This document shows, piece by piece, positions 7,229 to 21,696 of a stretch of DNA of 22,142 nt. Position 1 is the first letter of the stretch; every line of letters starts with the position of its first letter. The stretch lies in IMG/VR virus record IMGVR_UViG_3300032213_001177, positions 1 to 22,142 of that record, one strand, 5' to 3'. The notes beneath the pieces are model-generated. The model was not told where the DNA came from, made no database searches, and worked only from the letters and a program-made list of their open reading frames with translations. The translations under genes were made by a program, and so were the position numbers. Source of the DNA: a virus.

Positions 7229-8012
7229 AGCCGTTAAATACATCAATAAGTATCAAAGAAGCTTTTATAATGCTTTGCAGTCCGATATGCGAGGCTTTCA
7301 GGATGCACTAAGGGAAAGCGAACAAGCTGCAAAAAAGTACGTGAACAATCTGCTTTTTAGTGATGGTATAAGCCGAGTGATGAATCAAATAATTAGGGAG
7401 GTTGGTGTAAGATATGCACGTACTAATTACAATACACTAAGAAAGGAAAAGCAGTTTAACACATCTGAGGAGTGGATCCAATTGATAATGGAATACTTAG
7501 GTACTAACTTTTACAACAACGGAGTTTTGCAGATAGTAAAGACAAGCCGAACGATGATGCTTGACATATTAGAATTAGGCAATCGGGAAGGGTGGGGATA
7601 TTCTGATTATGCTCGTTATTTATCTGAGAAAGTGCCTGGTTTAAATAGGAATAGGGCAGATATGATTGCACGAACTGAGGTTGGCAGGGCTATTCATGCC
7701 GGAACATTTGTTGGTGCTGACAAATCACCATTTGAAAAGCAAAAGATGTGGGTTGCTGCAAAGGATAACCGGACAAGGGGAAACCCTATCAATGGGCAAA
7801 AGGATAAAGCAGACCATTGGCATTTAGATGGGCAAACGGTAGATTTTAATGATAAGTTTGTGGATCGCAGATCGGGAACAGAATTAGAGCATCCACATGA
7901 TCCACAGGCGGGGGCCGCTGATGTTATCCGTTGCCGTTGCACTTTTGCGATAGTCAATAAACGGGATGCAAACGGCAGATTAATAAGGAAACAAAGTATT
8001 AATTTTAGATAG
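7182..8012 (+). CDS. Phage head morphogenesis protein, SPP1 gp7 / Mu F family
   Basis: 276 residues. The N-terminal half is helical and basic. The C-terminal half carries the family signature: RADMIARTEVGRAIHAG (158-174), MWVAAKDNRTRG (189-200), HWHLDGQTV (212-220), and HPHDPQAGAADVIRCRC (237-253) with the closing Arg-Cys-Arg-Cys. Family members are minor head proteins that bind the portal on the inside and affect head assembly and DNA entry. The gene order portal - Mu F - protease - capsid is standard. Its start at 7182 lies within the preceding small gene. The TAG stop at 8010-8012 overlaps a GTTGACA motif that precedes the next transcription unit. Confidence 0.88.
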   Translation: MTARQRRIYWNRERNKAVKYINKYQRSFYNALQSDMRGFQDALRESEQAAKKYVNNLLFSDGISRVMNQIIREVGVRYARTNYNTLRKEKQFNTSEEWIQLIMEYLGTNFYNNGVLQIVKTSRTMMLDILELGNREGWGYSDYARYLSEKVPGLNRNRADMIARTEVGRAIHAGTFVGADKSPFEKQKMWVAAKDNRTRGNPINGQKDKADHWHLDGQTVDFNDKFVDRRSGTELEHPHDPQAGAADVIRCRCTFAIVNKRDANGRLIRKQSINFR

Positions 8013-8049
8013 TTGACAAATATTTATCTTTGTATTGTTTTTATATTTG
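8012..8049 (+). promoter_or_regulatory. Promoter of the protease-capsid unit with GTTGACA motif
   Basis: TATATTTG at 8042-8049 matches TAnnTTTG exactly and ends 12 bases before the chosen ATG (8062). A second exact box, TATCTTTG, lies at 8025-8032. No TTTG sits 19-21 bases upstream of either. GTTGACA at 8012-8018 lies 50 bases before the ATG, as it does upstream of two other units in the window. A separate strong promoter fits the high demand for capsid protein. Confidence 0.6.
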
Positions 8050-8922: not shown

Positions 8923-10059
8923 ATGGCAAATGAAATCCTCGATGCCCTAAATCCTTTGGTGGATGGCATCAAATCAGAAATCAAGTCAGTAGATGCTAAA
9001 TTAGCCGCTGACATCGCGCAACTTAATGAAGATGCGCAAAAGAAAAACGAAACAATCGGAGAACTGGCTAACAAAGTAAAAGAAATGTCAGCTTCAGCAA
9101 ATCGTTTGAAATCAGGTATTGAAACAGAAGCAAAAAAAGATTGGTCAAATTCAGATAGATTCAAGGCTGCCATCATGGATATTGTAGCTGAGAACTATGA
9201 TAAGATCAAATCTGAAACATCTTTCATGAGTACTAAGGTTGTTGGTGACATGACCATGACTAACAATCTGACCGGAACTTCACAGATTAGCTATGTACCT
9301 TCAAATCTGCTTCGTTCTTTCTACAATCCTCATCTTTATGATGTTTTTCGTATTATCCCAACTGCAACTGGTAACGTTACTTTCCCCCGCGGAAATAACC
9401 CTGTAGGTGAAGGATCATTCGGAGCGCAAACAGAAGGCAACAGCAAATCACAAGTTGATTATGATGTAACAATGGTTAACGTTTCTGTTCCTTTTATCGC
9501 TGGTTTTGCTAAGGTTAGCCGTCAAATGCTGCAAGATCTTCCTTTCTTACAAGCTTACTTATCTCAGTCACTTGTTGAAGATTGGAATAGAGCGGTAAAC
9601 ACACGTTTCCTTAATACAATTGCTTCCGGATCAACAGCCCTTTCTACATCTGCAACAGTTAATGCTGAAAAAATGATTGATGGTGTTGCACAACACATGG
9701 CGCTTGGTCTTGGTATGCCAAATGTAATTCTTACTACTCACGCTTCATGGGCTACTTTGCTTAAAACTAAGCCTGCTGATTACAGTGTGCCTGGTGGTGT
9801 TACAATAGGAGCAGGCGGTGAAACTCGCATCGTTGGTATCCCAGTTGTACCACATGCTCAAGTTACTGGATCACGTTTTTATGTTATCAATACCGATGCT
9901 TTTGGTATCGCTCAAGCTTCTGCTCTTAGCGTCCGTAGTACTGAGTTTGATGATACAGATTTCCAAAAGAATCTTATCACTTACCGTGCTGAAGCGCGTA
10001 TTGAACTGCTCAGCTTCCAACCTACTGCCGCTGTTTACGGAACAACCGGAACTGCTTAA
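8923..10059 (+). CDS. Major capsid protein, HK97 fold
   Basis: 378 residues. Residues 1-75 form a charged, helical coil (EIKSVDAKLAADIAQLNEDA, ELANKVKEM) like the delta/scaffold domain of HK97-type capsid proteins. The body from about 100 on has the typical run: YVPSNLLRSFYNPHLYDVFR, FPRGNNPVGEG, FIAGFAKVSRQMLQD, SQSLVEDWNRAVNTRFLNTI, GIPVVPHAQV. No separate scaffold gene is present, so the N-terminal arm probably serves and is then removed by the upstream protease; the cut site cannot be read with certainty. Codons such as CGT, CTT, TTC and ATC are used more than in neighbours, as expected for the most abundant protein. A strong terminator follows. Confidence 0.94.
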   Translation: MANEILDALNPLVDGIKSEIKSVDAKLAADIAQLNEDAQKKNETIGELANKVKEMSASANRLKSGIETEAKKDWSNSDRFKAAIMDIVAENYDKIKSETSFMSTKVVGDMTMTNNLTGTSQISYVPSNLLRSFYNPHLYDVFRIIPTATGNVTFPRGNNPVGEGSFGAQTEGNSKSQVDYDVTMVNVSVPFIAGFAKVSRQMLQDLPFLQAYLSQSLVEDWNRAVNTRFLNTIASGSTALSTSATVNAEKMIDGVAQHMALGLGMPNVILTTHASWATLLKTKPADYSVPGGVTIGAGGETRIVGIPVVPHAQVTGSRFYVINTDAFGIAQASALSVRSTEFDDTDFQKNLITYRAEARIELLSFQPTAAVYGTTGTA

Positions 10060-10092
10060 TTGGTTTGTGTTTAGTGTTGGCTTACAATTACG

Positions 10093-10117
10093 GCCTCCCA
10101 GTTTTGGGAGGCTTTTT
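10093..10117 (+). terminator. Intrinsic terminator after the capsid gene
   Basis: An 8-base perfect stem GCCTCCCA / TGGGAGGC (10093-10100 and 10105-10112) with a four-base loop GTTT is followed directly by five T residues (10113-10117). This is a classic Rho-independent terminator on the plus strand. It ends the capsid transcript 34 bases after its stop codon and isolates it from the glycosyltransferase genes. Confidence 0.88.
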
Positions 10118-10118
10118 G

Positions 10119-10126
10119 TATATTTG
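10119..10126 (+). promoter_or_regulatory. Promoter box of the glycosyltransferase cassette
   Basis: TATATTTG, an exact TAnnTTTG box, starts one base after the T-run of the preceding terminator and ends four bases before the ATG at 10131. Transcription would start on or next to the start codon, giving a leaderless or near-leaderless mRNA. Its -33 region falls in the terminator stem and shows no good TTTG match. Confidence 0.55.
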
Positions 10127-10130
10127 TGGT

Positions 10131-10691
10131 ATGAGAGCCGTTTGTCTTAATTTAGCCGCGCGTAATGATAGATGGAAATTAGCCGAAAAGGAATTTAAGC
10201 AACAGGGTATTGATGTGGAACGATTTTATGCAATTGAGCATAATGATCGTTTTTTATCATTTAATTTATCTCAGCAAGCAATACTTAAAACTATTACAGA
10301 AAACACGGCGGTTTTTGAGGATGATGTTGTATTTATAAATAATATGTACAAGCACATCATCCAAACGGCTCCTGAGGGTTGGGATATGCTTTATTTAAGT
10401 GGTCATGTGCTTATGCCATTAAAACACGTTGAAGATCATTGGTGGAGGTGTAAACATACGCATACAACTCATTCCGTTATTTATACACCACAGGCGGCAA
10501 AGTATATACTTGAGCGGTTTGACCCAATGAAAAGCGGCATTTATGATGATTTCCTTTTACGTGAAATACAGCCTAATTTAAAAGCTTATATTTGTAAGCC
10601 ATTTGTTACAACGCAGCGGCCTGGATATTCTGATTTATGGCAGACTGAAACGGATTACGGAATATTACACACACAAAGCAAATTAATATGA
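10131..10691 (+). CDS. Glycosyltransferase family 25-like
   Basis: 186 residues from the ATG at 10131. The frame is open 66 bases further upstream, but that part encodes the terminator hairpin and promoter. GT25 landmarks: the N-terminal strand VCLNLAARNDRW (4-15), where this family has 'xNLxxRxDR'; an acidic EDD in VFEDDVVF (61-68) that would bind the metal and nucleotide sugar; THSVIYTPQAAKYIL (113-127); and YDDFL (138-142). Members transfer galactose, glucose or similar sugars onto lipopolysaccharide cores or onto protein hydroxylysine. It is shorter than typical bacterial GT25 enzymes (about 250) but the core is complete. No membrane segment is visible. First gene of a tightly overlapping five-gene cassette; its stop overlaps the next ATG as ATGA. 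Confidence 0.8.
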   Translation: MRAVCLNLAARNDRWKLAEKEFKQQGIDVERFYAIEHNDRFLSFNLSQQAILKTITENTAVFEDDVVFINNMYKHIIQTAPEGWDMLYLSGHVLMPLKHVEDHWWRCKHTHTTHSVIYTPQAAKYILERFDPMKSGIYDDFLLREIQPNLKAYICKPFVTTQRPGYSDLWQTETDYGILHTQSKLI

Positions 10692-11422
10692 GAATAGTTC
10701 ACATTACTTTTGCTGATATGAATATGTCGCAAAGTGCAATACTTTGCAGAGATAGTGCTTTAAAACACGGTGCGCATCATTCTATTATGTTTAACAAAAG
10801 ATGTTATGATCCTTTGTTTTATAGTTTGAATAAAGATGTTTTGGATCAGGATAGAGGAGCAGGGTATTGGTTATGGAAGCCTTACATTATTTACAATAAT
10901 TTATGCAGGCTAAATGAAGGTGATGTATTGATTTATACAGACGCGGGTGTTGAAGTGGTCAATGATTTAAATATTATCATTGATAAAATGGATAGCGATG
11001 TGTTTTTATTTGGAAATAATTACAAGCATTTGGATTGGTGTAAAATGAGTGTAATGAACGGAATTTTTCCGAGGTGGGATACAAAATTTAACAGAGATAA
11101 TAGGCAAATACAGGCTTCTGCAATATTTATAAAAAACACCAAAGCGGCTAGGTTGTTTATTGGTCAATGGCTTAAGTATTGCCAATTAGATGGTTTTATT
11201 GATGATTCATTAAGTACTGATTACAATTACCCTACATTTCAGGAACATAGGCATGATCAAGCAATACTAACTTGTTTGGCTTATAAACACGGAATAAAAT
11301 TACATTGGTGGCCTGCGCATTATAACGAAGGCCAGTTTATTTACGATAAAGATCAGCAATTTCAGGATGATAATTATCCTGTAATATTTCATCATCACCG
11401 CAAAAGAAATAACGAATGGTAA
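10688..11422 (+). CDS. Putative GT-A-type glycosyltransferase
   Basis: 244 residues. The N-terminal half has the pattern RGAGYWLWKP (56-65) followed by EGDVLIYTDAG (77-87), where the acidic TDAG could serve as the DxD-like nucleotide-sugar site of a GT-A fold. Further blocks are IQASAIFIKN (141-150), HRHDQAIL (187-194) and a C-terminal His cluster HHHR (235-238). Proteins with the GYW-WKP / D-A-G combination occur in capsule and lipopolysaccharide loci, but the sugar and acceptor are unknown. It has no signal peptide or membrane helix, so it should act in the cytoplasm. Its stop overlaps the methyltransferase start by seven bases. The glycosyltransferase call rests on the motif pair and context. 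Confidence 0.65.
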   Translation: MRIVHITFADMNMSQSAILCRDSALKHGAHHSIMFNKRCYDPLFYSLNKDVLDQDRGAGYWLWKPYIIYNNLCRLNEGDVLIYTDAGVEVVNDLNIIIDKMDSDVFLFGNNYKHLDWCKMSVMNGIFPRWDTKFNRDNRQIQASAIFIKNTKAARLFIGQWLKYCQLDGFIDDSLSTDYNYPTFQEHRHDQAILTCLAYKHGIKLHWWPAHYNEGQFIYDKDQQFQDDNYPVIFHHHRKRNNEW

Positions 11423-11982
11423 AAAGAATAACACAAGATAGGTGGCATGAGGCGCAAATAGCAGAAAGAATCTGTCATAAATTTGACAGAAAACATGGCG
11501 AAAATCATTATAAAAATACTTATCTAAATTATTTTCAATATTTAGATATTAAGGATTCAGATGCTTTTATTATTGAAATAGGATGTGCAGATTTTCCTGC
11601 TTTACAATGGGTTAAATTTGGGAAAGGTATTTTTATTGAACCGATGCCATCGGTAATATTAAAAGATATTGCAAAAGAATTAGGCTGTGATATTATTGCG
11701 AAACCAGTTGAGGAAATAGATATACCAAAATGTGATGAAATATGGCTTTTAAATGTGATGCAGCATGTTATAGACCCGGATTTGTTTATTGCTAAGTGTA
11801 AAGAATCGGCTAAGGTAATCAGGTTCTTTGAGCCAATTGATTGGCCAATAGAAATTTATCATCCTCACACTTTTACATTTGATTGGTATAAAAGTCATTT
11901 TCCTGATGCTAAATTATATAAAGGCGACAAACCTAATTTTCACGAAGCTAAATGTGCATACGGTATATGGTCACAAGCTTAA
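11416..11982 (+). CDS. SAM-dependent methyltransferase (class I)
   Basis: 188 residues with a Rossmann-type methyltransferase core: motif I IIEIGCADFPAL (52-63), where the acidic-Gly-Cys segment holds SAM; the next strand ending FIEPMPS (73-79) with an acidic residue for the ribose; and the post-motif EIWLLNVMQHVIDP (108-121) of the form 'D-x-(I/V)-x-x-x-x-V-x-x-H'. This resembles small-molecule or sugar O-methyltransferases such as FkbM and Methyltransf_11/23 members more than DNA methyltransferases: there is no DPPY/NPPY motif. Placed between glycosyltransferase genes, it most likely methylates a sugar, perhaps capping the glycan. The DNA is AT-rich even for this window. Confidence 0.75.
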   Translation: MVKRITQDRWHEAQIAERICHKFDRKHGENHYKNTYLNYFQYLDIKDSDAFIIEIGCADFPALQWVKFGKGIFIEPMPSVILKDIAKELGCDIIAKPVEEIDIPKCDEIWLLNVMQHVIDPDLFIAKCKESAKVIRFFEPIDWPIEIYHPHTFTFDWYKSHFPDAKLYKGDKPNFHEAKCAYGIWSQA

Positions 11983-12722
11983 GCATAGGCACTGGAGGAC
12001 TTGGTAGGTTTGGTAACCAAATGTGGACTATTGCCGGATGCATTGGTATTGCAAGGGCAAACGGAATGGATTTTGCTTTTCCTAAGTGGGTGAATCATGA
12101 TAATGTGCTTTTTGGAGCGAATAGAGACGATTTAAGCCGCTATTTTGTTAATCAACTGCCTTTGTTACCTGATGGCAGGCATTGGCAGGAATACGGCTAT
12201 TTTTGGGGATATAAGGATGTAAAATTAAATAGAGGTGACTGGTCAATTAATGCGCATCTGCAAAGCCATACATTTTTTGAGCATTGCATTGATGAGGTGA
12301 GGCATTACTTTACTTTAAAAAATGAAGGCGAACAAAACAATTTCTGCGCTGTTCATGTGAGGGCGGGGGATTACATTGATGATCCAAATGCTTATCATCC
12401 AATTTGCTCAAATGAGTATTATCAAAAAGCGGTTAGTTTAATGCCATCAGGAACAAAGTATATTATTTTTAGTGATGATTTGGATTTTGCTAAAAAAAGG
12501 ACTGGCATCGATGGCATCTATTTATCTGAGCATTACATTGATGATTTTAGATTAATGAAGCGGTGCAAACATTTTATTATTGCAAACAGTAGCTTTTCTG
12601 CAATGGCGGCTTTATTGGCAGATCATCCCGAAAAGATAGTTGTTGCCCCTAAGCGTTGGTTTGGACCACATGTTGACATATCGGCAAAAGATATTTATCA
12701 TCCAAAATGGTTAGTAATATGA
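11967..12722 (+). CDS. Glycosyltransferase family 11-like (alpha-1,2-fucosyltransferase type)
   Basis: 251 residues from the ATG at 11967; an in-frame ATG at 11952 would add five residues. Family GT11 motifs are clear: GGLGRFGNQMW (10-20), the GDP-sugar-binding VHVRAGDYI (129-137) with H-x-R-x-G-D-Y, FSDD (168-171), and ANSSFSAMAALL (206-217) in place of the usual 'NSSFSWWAA'. Known members add L-fucose (or galactose) from GDP- or related donors in alpha-1,2 linkage to O-antigen or host-like glycans. No GDP-fucose synthesis genes are here, so the donor would come from the host. No membrane segment. It overlaps the methyltransferase by 16 bases and the next gene by four (ATGA). Confidence 0.85.
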   Translation: MVTSLSIGTGGLGRFGNQMWTIAGCIGIARANGMDFAFPKWVNHDNVLFGANRDDLSRYFVNQLPLLPDGRHWQEYGYFWGYKDVKLNRGDWSINAHLQSHTFFEHCIDEVRHYFTLKNEGEQNNFCAVHVRAGDYIDDPNAYHPICSNEYYQKAVSLMPSGTKYIIFSDDLDFAKKRTGIDGIYLSEHYIDDFRLMKRCKHFIIANSSFSAMAALLADHPEKIVVAPKRWFGPHVDISAKDIYHPKWLVI

Positions 12723-13657
12723 ACATTCTTTGGTCAATACACCTTTATTTCCCAAGACATGGCAGCGGAGCCGAGGCAATGGCTCGAAACATAAACAGGT
12801 ATTTAAAAAGTCAGAGTCATGACATTAAAATACTATTGCATCAGGCTAATCAGTACAAAATAACTGAGATGTATGAATATGAAGGTGTGGATGTATTCCC
12901 GCCTGATGAATACATTATAGATAAACTTTTTACTTGGGCTGATGTGGTAATTTCACATTTAGATTACAACAAATGGACTACTCACACATGTGAAAAATAT
13001 AAAAAGCCAATAATTCATATTGTTCACAACGATACACCGTATCCATCGGTAAAGGATTCACCCATACCTGTAAAAGTGGTTTACAATTCCGACTGGTGCA
13101 AAAAGGCATTAAATTATAATTGGCCTAGTATTGTGTTTCCTCCTCCTATTGATGAATGGGTAAAGACGGATGATAAGGAAAGGAAATATATTACCTTAAT
13201 AAATTTGAATCAAAACAAAGGAAGCCGTTATTTTTACAGCCTTGCTAAAAAGCTGCCTCAATATCAATTTTTAGGTGTAAAAGGCAGTTATGATGGTCAA
13301 CATATTGAAAATCTGCCAAATGTAAAAATAATACCAAATACACCTGATATTCGGGAGGTTTACAAAAAGACAAAAATATTGTTAGTGCCTTCGCATTATG
13401 AAAGTTGGGGGATGGTTGCAGGCGAAGGATTGATAAATGGCATTCCTGTAATTTACAATCCAACACCTGGACTGCTTGAGAATGTTGCAGATGGTGGGAT
13501 ATGCTTAAATAGAAAAGATACAGAAAAATGGGTTGAAGAGATTAATAAATTAATGACTGATTCGACATATTACAAAAAATGGTCTAAAAAGGGATTAAAA
13601 AGAGCCGAACAGCATTTGCCCAAGTGGAAAGAATTGGAAGAGTTTATCTGTAAATAA
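12719..13657 (+). CDS. Glycosyltransferase family 4
   Basis: 312 residues from the ATG at 12719, which overlaps the previous stop as ATGA; an ATG at 12707 is in frame but adds only four residues. A GT-B retaining glycosyltransferase: an N-terminal acceptor-side domain with HGSGAEAMARNINRYL (14-29), then a donor-side domain with LINLNQNKGSRYFYSLAKKL and the hallmark E-x7-E motif in SHYESWGMVAGEGLINGIPV (Glu228 and Glu236), followed by TPGLLENV and GGICL. Family members use GDP-mannose, UDP-sugars and others. It is short for GT4 (usual 350-400), but both halves are present. It ends the cassette; a hairpin follows directly after the stop. Confidence 0.88.
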   Translation: MNILWSIHLYFPRHGSGAEAMARNINRYLKSQSHDIKILLHQANQYKITEMYEYEGVDVFPPDEYIIDKLFTWADVVISHLDYNKWTTHTCEKYKKPIIHIVHNDTPYPSVKDSPIPVKVVYNSDWCKKALNYNWPSIVFPPPIDEWVKTDDKERKYITLINLNQNKGSRYFYSLAKKLPQYQFLGVKGSYDGQHIENLPNVKIIPNTPDIREVYKKTKILLVPSHYESWGMVAGEGLINGIPVIYNPTPGLLENVADGGICLNRKDTEKWVEEINKLMTDSTYYKKWSKKGLKRAEQHLPKWKELEEFICK

Positions 13658-13682
13658 AAAGCCGCCTATAGAAATAAGCGGC
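13656..13682 (-). terminator. Hairpin after the glycan cassette, terminator-like on the minus strand
   Basis: GCCGC (13661-13665) pairs with GCGGC (13678-13682); three inner pairs can add to the stem. Five A residues (13656-13660) precede it, so only on the minus strand is the hairpin followed by a T-run. On the plus strand it lacks a T-run and would be at best a weak end for the cassette transcript. An exact TAnnTTTG box on the minus strand (plus 13712-13719) faces it. Confidence 0.45.
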
Positions 13683-13728
13683 AACAAACCCTTAACCATT
13701 GTATGAGAAAACAAAGATATGGTGTTTG

Positions 13729-13772
13729 GTTGACAAATTAAAACATATCCGGTCAACTATTTTTTACCTTTG
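13729..13772 (+). promoter_or_regulatory. Promoter of the connector-tail unit with inverted GTTGAC repeat
   Basis: TACCTTTG at 13765-13772 matches TAnnTTTG exactly and ends six bases before the ATG at 13779, so the mRNA would be leaderless or nearly so. GTTGAC (13729-13734) and GTCAAC (13752-13757) form a perfect inverted repeat with a 17-base spacer, suggesting a dimeric regulator site. The first half-site is 50 bases before the ATG, as upstream of the protease unit. Confidence 0.55.
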
Positions 13773-13778
13773 GTAGGT

Positions 13779-14312
13779 ATGAACAATATATACGAAATTA
13801 AGGTTACTGATGGATCAGAGCCTATTAGCCTGGAAACGGCAAAGGATTGGTTAAGGGTTACGACTGAGGATGATGATGCTATAATAACTGATCTTATTAC
13901 CGTTTCACGTAAAAGAATAGAAGCCTATTCTTTACGGTCAATGGTTGCAAAAAGTATTGTTTTAACCGGACATTTACAATATCCCTTCCTTTTGCCTTAT
14001 TCCCCTATCTCAAATATTAGCGCGGTTAAATATTTGCAGGGTCAAATTGTAGATACTGGGGTGAATGATTGGGATACTTTGGATCCTGATGAATATCAGG
14101 TTATAGGATACAACGATAAGCATTTTAGACCGCAATTTACAGGCACTTATGAAATAACCTACACAACAACAGCAAATGCAGATTCGGGGCTTAAAACCGA
14201 TTTAAAACGTGTTTTATTGTGGATGTACGAAAACAGGGGGGATGATACGGATGAAATGCCTACCGAGTTAATGAGTAATGCAAAAAATTTAAAGGTGTTG
14301 ACATGGGTATAG
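13779..14312 (+). CDS. Head-tail connector, HK97 gp6-like
   Basis: 177 residues from the ATG at 13779; a TTG three codons earlier lies in the promoter box. The N-terminal EPISLETAKDWLRVTTEDDD (14-33) followed by AIITDLITVSRKRIEAYSLR is the characteristic opening of the phage_gp6/YqbG-like connector family, a helical domain. The middle is beta-rich and includes the LPYSPISNISAVKY run typical of the family. The C-terminal helix DLKRVLLWMYENRGD closes the fold. These proteins form a ring under the portal. First gene of the tail block after the glycan cassette; it overlaps the next gene by ten bases. Confidence 0.88.
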   Translation: MNNIYEIKVTDGSEPISLETAKDWLRVTTEDDDAIITDLITVSRKRIEAYSLRSMVAKSIVLTGHLQYPFLLPYSPISNISAVKYLQGQIVDTGVNDWDTLDPDEYQVIGYNDKHFRPQFTGTYEITYTTTANADSGLKTDLKRVLLWMYENRGDDTDEMPTELMSNAKNLKVLTWV

Positions 14313-15637: not shown

Positions 15638-16060
15638 ATGGCAACAATTCAAGGTACATCCGTCACTTTACAATTAAGAGAAAGCGGCACAACCGGAGCT
15701 TATTTAAATGTAGTTTGTGAAACTACTTCTTCCCTTTCAGGCTCAGCATCTGTAACCACAGCCGTTACAAAATGCAATACAATTACATCTGTTTCTGCAC
15801 CAACAATAACTTTTGCGGTTGAAGGTGTAGCCGAAACAGCACCATCAGCGGGACAAGTAAGCGTTGAGAATTTGCTAAGTTGGTTTAAAGCTAATACTTT
15901 ATTGGATGTTAAATACGAAGACCCTGAAGGTACTGGTGCAAATTTTTATGTCCAAGGTTCTGGGTACATGAGTGAATTTGGCATAACTTCGCCTGCTGAG
16001 GGTGCGGTTACATTTACTGCATCATTTCAGTTAACTGGTACGATTGATGTAACACCATAA
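15638..16060 (+). CDS. Major tail tube protein
   Basis: 140 residues, rich in Thr, Ser, Ala and Val and almost wholly beta: ATIQGTSVTLQLRESGTTGA, TAVTKCNTITSVSAPTITFA, VEGVAETAPSAGQVSVENLL, ANFYVQGSGYMSEFGITSPA and VTFTASFQLTGTIDV. This composition, the N-terminal strand, and the ending 'f-x-a-s-f-q-l-t-G-x-i' match siphophage tail tube proteins, which stack as hexamers round the tape measure. It lies between the tail terminator and the tail chaperones, the usual place. Codon use is somewhat enriched for abundant-protein codons such as ACA and GGT. A one-base gap separates it from the chaperone gene. Confidence 0.8.
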   Translation: MATIQGTSVTLQLRESGTTGAYLNVVCETTSSLSGSASVTTAVTKCNTITSVSAPTITFAVEGVAETAPSAGQVSVENLLSWFKANTLLDVKYEDPEGTGANFYVQGSGYMSEFGITSPAEGAVTFTASFQLTGTIDVTP

Positions 16061-21060: not shown

Positions 21061-21696
21061 ATGGCAAATCTTAAAGGCAACGAATTAGTTTTATACGCAT
21101 ATGAGGATTTGGAGCCTATAGGCTGTGAGGAAACTTTTACTCTTAATCTGACATCTACTGAGATAATTACAACAACTAAGGGTAGCGGTAGGGCTACTAA
21201 TAGAGAATACGGCGCTTATGATTGGAACATACAGGCAAGTGGTGTTGTAACTATTGGTGAGGCAGGCAAAACAAATCCTTTGCATTTTAATGATAATTTG
21301 ATAAAAGGTAAAAAGGTAGCCATTAAGGCTGTTTATGGTTCTGATTTTTATTTTGGGATTGGTGTTGTAACATCCGCAACAAATACAGGTACATCGGGTG
21401 AACTTGCAAAATACGATGTTACCATTACAGCGGATGGGCCGCTTTATAGCACAAACGGATTAAAAAATACTGAGAATGAGCCTGATATATATGAATATAG
21501 CAGTACAAGCTATCCGGTAAGCGTTTCTTCTTTTAGTTTATATGCTGTTACTTTATTAATGGTATTTGTTGGTGATGAATATTATGCCCCTGAAACTTAC
21601 GATTTTATTTCAGATAATGGCTACGGATTGGGCGTAATAACATTTGATTCAGCTTTACCAAGCGGTAAAACAGTTAGATTGTTTATAGTTCCTTAG
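21061..21696 (+). CDS. Second tail-tube-like protein with C-terminal adhesion-type domain
   Basis: 211 residues. The first 140 resemble TP901-1/phi13-type major tail proteins: MANLKGNELVLYAYEDLEPI with GCEETFTLNL, then STEIITTTKGSGRATN (the 't-x-(E)-I-x-x-x-x-K-G-S-G' step), YDWNIQASGVVTIGE (W-x-(I)-x-x-x-G) and AKYDVTITADGPL. The last 65 residues (VSSFSLYAVTLLMVFVGDEY, YAPETYDF, GLGVITFDSALPSGKTVRLF) form a beta domain like those near the C-terminus of tail and fibre proteins. A tube protein is already encoded at 15638-16060, so this copy may form a tip, a terminal ring or a decoration. It ends with TAG at 21694-21696, overlapping a GTTGACA motif. Confidence 0.7.
   Translation: MANLKGNELVLYAYEDLEPIGCEETFTLNLTSTEIITTTKGSGRATNREYGAYDWNIQASGVVTIGEAGKTNPLHFNDNLIKGKKVAIKAVYGSDFYFGIGVVTSATNTGTSGELAKYDVTITADGPLYSTNGLKNTENEPDIYEYSSTSYPVSVSSFSLYAVTLLMVFVGDEYYAPETYDFISDNGYGLGVITFDSALPSGKTVRLFIVP

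What the first reader, a model, noticed from the sequence alone, without database searches (positions are those of the whole stretch)
10093..13682. Five-gene glycan synthesis/methylation cassette inserted between capsid and connector genes
Seen: a GT25-like enzyme, a GT-A-like enzyme, a SAM methyltransferase, a GT11-like enzyme and a GT4 enzyme overlap one another in one block, 3.5 kb long, between the major capsid gene and the gp6-like connector, which are normally adjacent. The block has its own terminator-promoter junction on the left and a hairpin plus a new promoter on the right, like a moron. Known: phage glycosyltransferases can alter host O-antigen, or decorate virion proteins or hypermodified DNA. 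Inference: none of the five proteins has a visible membrane helix or signal peptide, there are no flippase, polymerase or nucleotide-sugar synthesis genes, and there is no base-modifying enzyme. That points to building a short, methyl-capped glycan in the cytoplasm using host sugar nucleotides, with capsid or tail protein as the most attractive acceptor. Position next to the capsid gene suits virion decoration. As a set this looks like an undescribed virion-glycosylation system.
Basis: partly seen in the sequence, partly recalled or inferred. Interest (0 to 1): 0.88.

Follow-up and report, generated by a model that had tools for sequence, protein, structure and literature searches.

The report
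Lineage-wide phage capsid-glycosylation gene block
Between its shell-protein gene and the next head gene, this uncultured phage of (probably) Bacteroidota carries five sugar-handling enzymes, and nearly all of its many relatives carry a version of the same block there, which suggests that the whole lineage coats its own particles with sugar, as so far shown only for some mycobacteriophages.

Summary
The five overlapping genes are real: GT25, a GT-A-fold enzyme, a SAM methyltransferase, GT11 and GT4, at about 10131-13657. Of 110 distinct MCP-to-connector intervals recovered, 109 hold the same GT4 gene, alone or behind a swappable set: methyltransferase; GT25; GT25-GTA-GT11; or GT25-GTA-MT-GT11. 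MCP-only recruitment gives 82 of 82 informative loci with cassette genes. The block is under purifying selection. The methyltransferase is gained or lost at least ten times on the GT11 tree. No integrase, GtrA, sugar-epimerase or thymidylate-synthase-like gene was found in the longest relatives. The closest known system is mycobacteriophage virion glycosylation: Che8 gp110, essential for it, is also GT25, Che8 gp108 is a GT-methyltransferase fusion, and Corndog-type phages carry an O-methyltransferase plus three GTs inside the head genes. Best reading: a virion (most likely capsid) glycosylation module with a constant GT4 and variable outer enzymes including an optional methyl cap. The acceptor and the glycan are inferred, not shown. 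Verdict: new variant of a known kind.

The parts
8923..10059 (+). major capsid protein (HK97 fold), proposed acceptor of the glycan
   Evidence: PF05065 E 5e-17, phrog_10 E 4e-23
10092..10118 (+). intrinsic terminator after the MCP gene
   Evidence: 9-pair stem plus T-run; conserved with some compensatory changes in 12 relatives and present as different hairpins in other clades
10119..10126 (+). TATATTTG box, matches the Bacteroidota -7 promoter consensus TAnnTTTG, 4 bases before the GT25 ATG
   Evidence: GTATATTT invariant in 12 relatives while neighbouring bases vary; promoter function inferred
10131..10691 (+). GT25-like glycosyltransferase (186 aa)
   Evidence: PF01755 26.5 bits, cut-off 24; phrog_2835 glucosyltransferase
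10688..11422 (+). GT-A-fold glycosyltransferase of unassigned family (244 aa), YTDAG motif
   Evidence: AlphaFold2 pLDDT 93.7, Foldseek matches to LARGE1 (GT8) and GT6 enzymes
11416..11982 (+). optional SAM-dependent methyltransferase (188 aa)
   Evidence: class-I methyltransferase fold matches; present in only part of the relatives
11967..12722 (+). GT11 (alpha-1,2-fucosyltransferase-like) enzyme, HVRAGDY motif; start corrected from 11952
   Evidence: PF01531 E 1.3e-19, phrog_2644 E 1e-39
12707..13657 (+). GT4 glycosyltransferase, the constant gene of the block (start may be 12719)
   Evidence: PF00534 E 6e-18, phrog_26352 E 2e-52; in 109 of 110 MCP-connector intervals
13661..13682 (.). conserved hairpin after GT4; T-run only on the minus strand
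   Evidence: variants in relatives
13729..13772 (+). promoter-like region before the connector: TTGACA with GTTGAC/GTCAAC inverted repeat and TACCTTTG box
   Evidence: conserved in close relatives; function inferred
13779..14312 (+). gp6-like head-tail connector, right neighbour
   Evidence: PF05135 E 1.4e-6, phrog_442

Best explanation
The block is a dedicated virion-glycosylation module, most likely acting on the major capsid protein. GT4, the only invariant member, is proposed to carry out the committing transfer to the acceptor protein (or the one transfer that every phage of the lineage needs). GT25, the GT-A enzyme and the fucosyltransferase-like GT11 then extend a short glycan with host nucleotide sugars in the cytoplasm, and the methyltransferase, where present, caps a sugar. 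Shown: gene content, enzyme classes or folds, lineage-wide fixed position, selection, repeated gain and loss of the methyltransferase. Inferred: the acceptor, the order of transfers, the sugars, and the benefit (for example masking the capsid from host sensors or altering particle surface properties).
For: GT4 lies between MCP and connector in 109 of 110 distinct intervals; MCP-only recruitment gives 72 loci with GT4 and 10 more with cassette GTs before the contig ends, of 82 informative. The Taibaiella and Saprospiraceae MAG contigs, with MCP only about 30% identical, hold the same set at the same site. GT4 follows an MCP directly in a Microbispora MAG contig, and a tandem GT4 lies between MCP and major tail gene in Streptomyces phage TurkishDelight. 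dN/dS medians 0.06-0.12 for all five genes. Che8 gp110 is PF01755 and gp108 a GT-methyltransferase fusion; cluster O phage Wildflower has O-methyltransferase plus three GTs between portal and protease. Che8 gp110 and Corndog gp38 are described as essential for capsid glycosylation (PMC12363180). No GtrA, epimerase, thymidylate-synthase family, tyrosine integrase or resolvase in 16-19 long relatives.
Against: No acceptor or glycan has been observed. The window GT25 has no detectable pairwise similarity to Che8 gp110. In the clades with GT25-GT4 or FkbM-GT4 the MCP ends in YGAI/YGNI without Ser/Thr, so the C-terminal acceptor site known from mycobacteriophages cannot apply to all. Position next to the capsid gene is suggestive only: in Che8 the GTs lie far from it. 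Contigs are incomplete, so missing membrane or lysogeny genes could lie outside them.
Confidence: 0.68

Rival explanations
1. The enzymes glycosylate a tail protein (tube or fibre) or another virion protein rather than the capsid; the position next to the MCP only reflects the late operon.
For: In mycobacteriophages both capsid and tail tube carry glycans (PMC12619734, PMC12363180). The tail tube C-terminus is threonine/serine-rich and similar across clades, including those whose MCP lacks a Ser/Thr tail.
Against: GT4 adjoins the MCP in every clade, and also in a Microbispora contig, rather than tail genes.
Confidence: 0.15
2. The enzymes modify host surface glycans (O-antigen or lipooligosaccharide) during infection, for example to exclude superinfection.
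For: GT25, GT11 and GT4 are typical of LPS/capsule loci, and phage GTs that change serotype are well known (established knowledge).
Against: No membrane helix in any of the five, no GtrA-type flippase in 19 relatives, no integrase in 16; genes sit among late head genes and in other clades are translationally coupled to the connector.
Confidence: 0.12
3. The GTs glycosylate hypermodified phage DNA.
For: Known for T-even and other phages (established knowledge); one clade carries a DNA-methylase-like gene in the block.
Against: No thymidylate-synthase/dCMP-hydroxymethylase family member in 19 relatives; methyltransferases found in the block are mostly not DNA methylases.
Confidence: 0.04

Closest known systems
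Mycobacteriophage Corndog / cluster O capsid modification cassette (gp35-gp38)
   Same: O-methyltransferase plus three glycosyltransferases as one block inside the head genes; capsid glycosylation attributed to it (PMC4351075, PMC12363180; Wildflower orthologues)
   Different: Lies between portal and protease, not MCP and connector; no GT4 or GT11 of the present families seen; Actinomycetota host
Mycobacteriophage Che8 gp108-gp110
   Same: GT25 (gp110), further GT, and a GT-methyltransferase fusion; capsid glycans experimentally shown (PMC11256854, PMC12363180)
   Different: Located at the right genome end, far from the capsid gene; temperate phage; GT2 rather than GT4/GT11
Streptomyces phage TurkishDelight gp20
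   Same: GT4 related to the constant GT4 of this lineage, between MCP and major tail gene; 30% identity
   Different: Two GT4 domains fused; no GT25, GT11 or methyltransferase neighbours annotated; no virion analysis known here
Chlorovirus PBCV-1 capsid glycosylation
   Same: Virus-encoded GTs decorate the major capsid protein without the ER/Golgi (PMC7019647)
   Different: Eukaryotic giant virus, N-linked glycans, unrelated capsid protein

Membership tests
Phage virion-glycosylation systems (Che8/Corndog type) | phage-encoded set of cytoplasmic GTs including a GT25-type enzyme | tested here: met
   window GT25 PF01755; Che8 gp110 PF01755; no membrane helix
Phage virion-glycosylation systems (Che8/Corndog type) | methyltransferase associated with the GT set | tested here: met
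   MT in window; Che8 gp108 fusion; Wildflower gp33; but optional in this lineage
Phage virion-glycosylation systems (Che8/Corndog type) | direct sequence homology of the enzymes to Che8/Corndog enzymes | tested here: inconclusive
   same Pfam family for GT25, but blastp/hmmsearch found no pairwise match to Che8 gp108-110
Phage virion-glycosylation systems (Che8/Corndog type) | glycan covalently on capsid and/or tail tube, at the C-terminus | not testable with these tools
   needs mass spectrometry; MCP ends TTGTA in this phage, SAS or AI/NI in other clades
CAZy-type GT4 | GT-B domain with E-x7-E | tested here: met
   PF00534, E232/E240 invariant in 14 sequences
CAZy-type GT11 | Glyco_transf_11 domain and HxRxGDY motif | tested here: met
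   PF01531 E 1.3e-19; HVRAGDY seen in the translated sequence
Gtr-type seroconversion systems | membrane flippase GtrA and membrane GT | tested here: not met
   no PF04138 in 19 relatives; no membrane helices in the five proteins
DNA hypermodification and glucosylation | pyrimidine hydroxymethylase supplying the acceptor base | tested here: not met
   no PF00303 in 19 relatives

The most novel reading that the evidence does not exclude
A whole, widespread lineage of uncultured aquatic phages (probably of Chitinophagales and related Bacteroidota) has virion glycosylation as a core trait: GT4 is a dedicated capsid-protein glycosyltransferase fixed beside the MCP gene, while outer-sugar and methyl-cap enzymes are swapped between strains, giving a rapidly diversifying glycan coat.
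Probability: 0.5. Interest if true: 0.75.

Novelty: new variant of a known kind. Interest (0 to 1): 0.6.

Why it matters
If true, glycosylated virions are not a peculiarity of mycobacteriophages but a fixed trait of a large environmental phage lineage, most of it sampled away from any animal immune system, which asks what capsid glycans are for: hiding the capsid from bacterial sensors, protection from proteases, or surface adhesion. The constant GT4 and the natural with/without-methyltransferase pairs give ready-made tests.

Tried and rejected
Moron or recent insertion: rejected, since relatives never show an empty site within the lineage; only L111 (MCP about 25% identical) lacks GTs, and L028 is too short to tell. 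Cultured relatives at the MCP level (Flavobacterium phage 11b, Cellulophaga phi10:1; about 30%) have no annotated GT there. DNA-level search of cultured phages: nothing. Seroconversion and DNA glucosylation: markers absent. C-terminal Ser/Thr acceptor as a lineage-wide rule: not upheld. Sigma-70 promoter scan: no excess that can be relied on (26 found, 19.5 +/- 4.8 expected). GT11 search of solved structures by sequence: no hit. The Corndog record and the primary paper by Freeman et al. 2023 were not held; its results are cited through later papers.

Full report
What is there. The window is an IMG/VR-type virus record of 22,142 bases. Around the block lie terminase, portal, Mu-F-like head protein, prohead protease and MCP on the left, and connector, head closure, tail completion, tail terminator, tail tube and tape measure genes on the right: a siphovirus-like late region. 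Five ORFs overlap one another from 10131 to 13657. GT25, GT11 and GT4 pass Pfam cut-offs; the second is a confident GT-A fold; the third is a class-I methyltransferase by fold, with modest model confidence.

Relatives. Recruiting by MCP alone gave 93 distinct MCPs; of 82 with at least 700 bases downstream, 72 have GT4 and the other 10 have earlier cassette GTs before the contig ends. Over all loci, 110 distinct MCP-to-connector intervals were found: 50 MT-GT4, 28 GT25-GTA-GT11-GT4, 16 with a methyltransferase in addition, 14 GT25-GT4, one GT4 alone, one without (L111, a far relative). Many of these loci were recruited by GT4, so the MCP-only count is the unbiased one. The methyltransferases in the slots are of several kinds: Methyltransf_23, FkbM, the window's type, and a DNA-methylase-like protein. 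Contigs binned as Taibaiella and Saprospiraceae (Bacteroidota) carry the full set with only about 30% identical MCPs; they may be phage contigs in host bins, so host assignment is a lead.

Evolution. All five genes are under purifying selection like the neighbours (median dN/dS 0.06-0.12). Pairwise identities of GTA and MCP correlate weakly (0.27), as expected if alleles are exchanged. On the GT11 tree the presence of the window-type methyltransferase needs at least 10 changes on well-supported branches and is not more clustered than shuffled labels. When it is absent the GTA stop overlaps the GT11 start, so the gene drops in and out cleanly. Caveats: the tree is a quick one, recombination between GT11 and MT would inflate the count, and many contigs may come from a limited number of sites.

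Expression. A terminator-like hairpin follows the MCP in the clades read and, in close relatives, is followed by an invariant GTATATTT a few bases before the GT25 start. This fits the Bacteroidota -7 element TAnnTTTG (established knowledge) and would give an almost leaderless mRNA; it is not proved. A similar box precedes the connector in most close relatives, but in other clades GT4 overlaps the connector start.

Function. The known analogue is virion glycosylation of mycobacteriophages. Cluster O phages carry an O-methyltransferase and three GTs between portal and protease, proposed in 2015 to modify the capsid (PMC4351075); glycosylation of capsid and tail tube by phage GTs was later reported, with Che8 gp110 and Corndog gp38 essential (PMC12363180, PMC12619734, PMC11256854, citing Freeman et al. 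2023, not held here). Che8 gp110 belongs to the same Pfam family as the window GT25 and gp108 fuses a GT with a methyltransferase. The likeness is of kind and arrangement; sequence homology beyond the Pfam family was not detected. Markers of seroconversion, lysogeny and DNA hypermodification were not found in long relatives. The MCP C-terminus is Thr-rich (YGTTGTA) where the full set occurs, YGSAS in the main MT-GT4 clade and YGAI/YGNI in others: a lead for the acceptor site in this clade only, confounded by descent.

Verdict. A conserved virion-glycosylation module is the best explanation (0.68), capsid more likely than tail. It is a new variant of a known kind, notable for being fixed in a large uncultured lineage and for its constant GT4 with exchangeable outer enzymes.

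Noticed in passing
15638-16060 and 21061-21696: Two genes match the same major tail protein family (phrog_1407); the second has about 70 extra C-terminal residues and lies after the tail genes, perhaps a second tail-tube or tail-decoration protein.
   Followed up: no
8011-8049 and 13728-13772: The only two plus-strand copies of [AG]GTTGACAAA in the window precede the prohead protease and the connector, each followed by TAnnTTTG boxes: candidate late promoters.
   Followed up: partly
L048 3174-3857 and 7877-8428; L176 4991-5497: Genes that look like GIY-YIG and HNH-type endonucleases have inserted inside or beside the cassette in some relatives.
   Followed up: no
L034 4461-5063, L029 10483-11091: A DNA-methylase-like gene (N6_N4_Mtase) occupies the methyltransferase slot between GTA and GT11 in some relatives.
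   Followed up: partly
L178 34-2670: An Actinomycetes MAG contig holds GT4 followed by a methyltransferase-like and a sulfotransferase-looking gene: possibly another variant of the module.
   Followed up: no
L028 4451-4809: A relative with 75% identical MCP has a short lipoprotein-like ORF instead of GT25 directly after the MCP; the contig ends too soon to tell whether the cassette is missing.
   Followed up: partly
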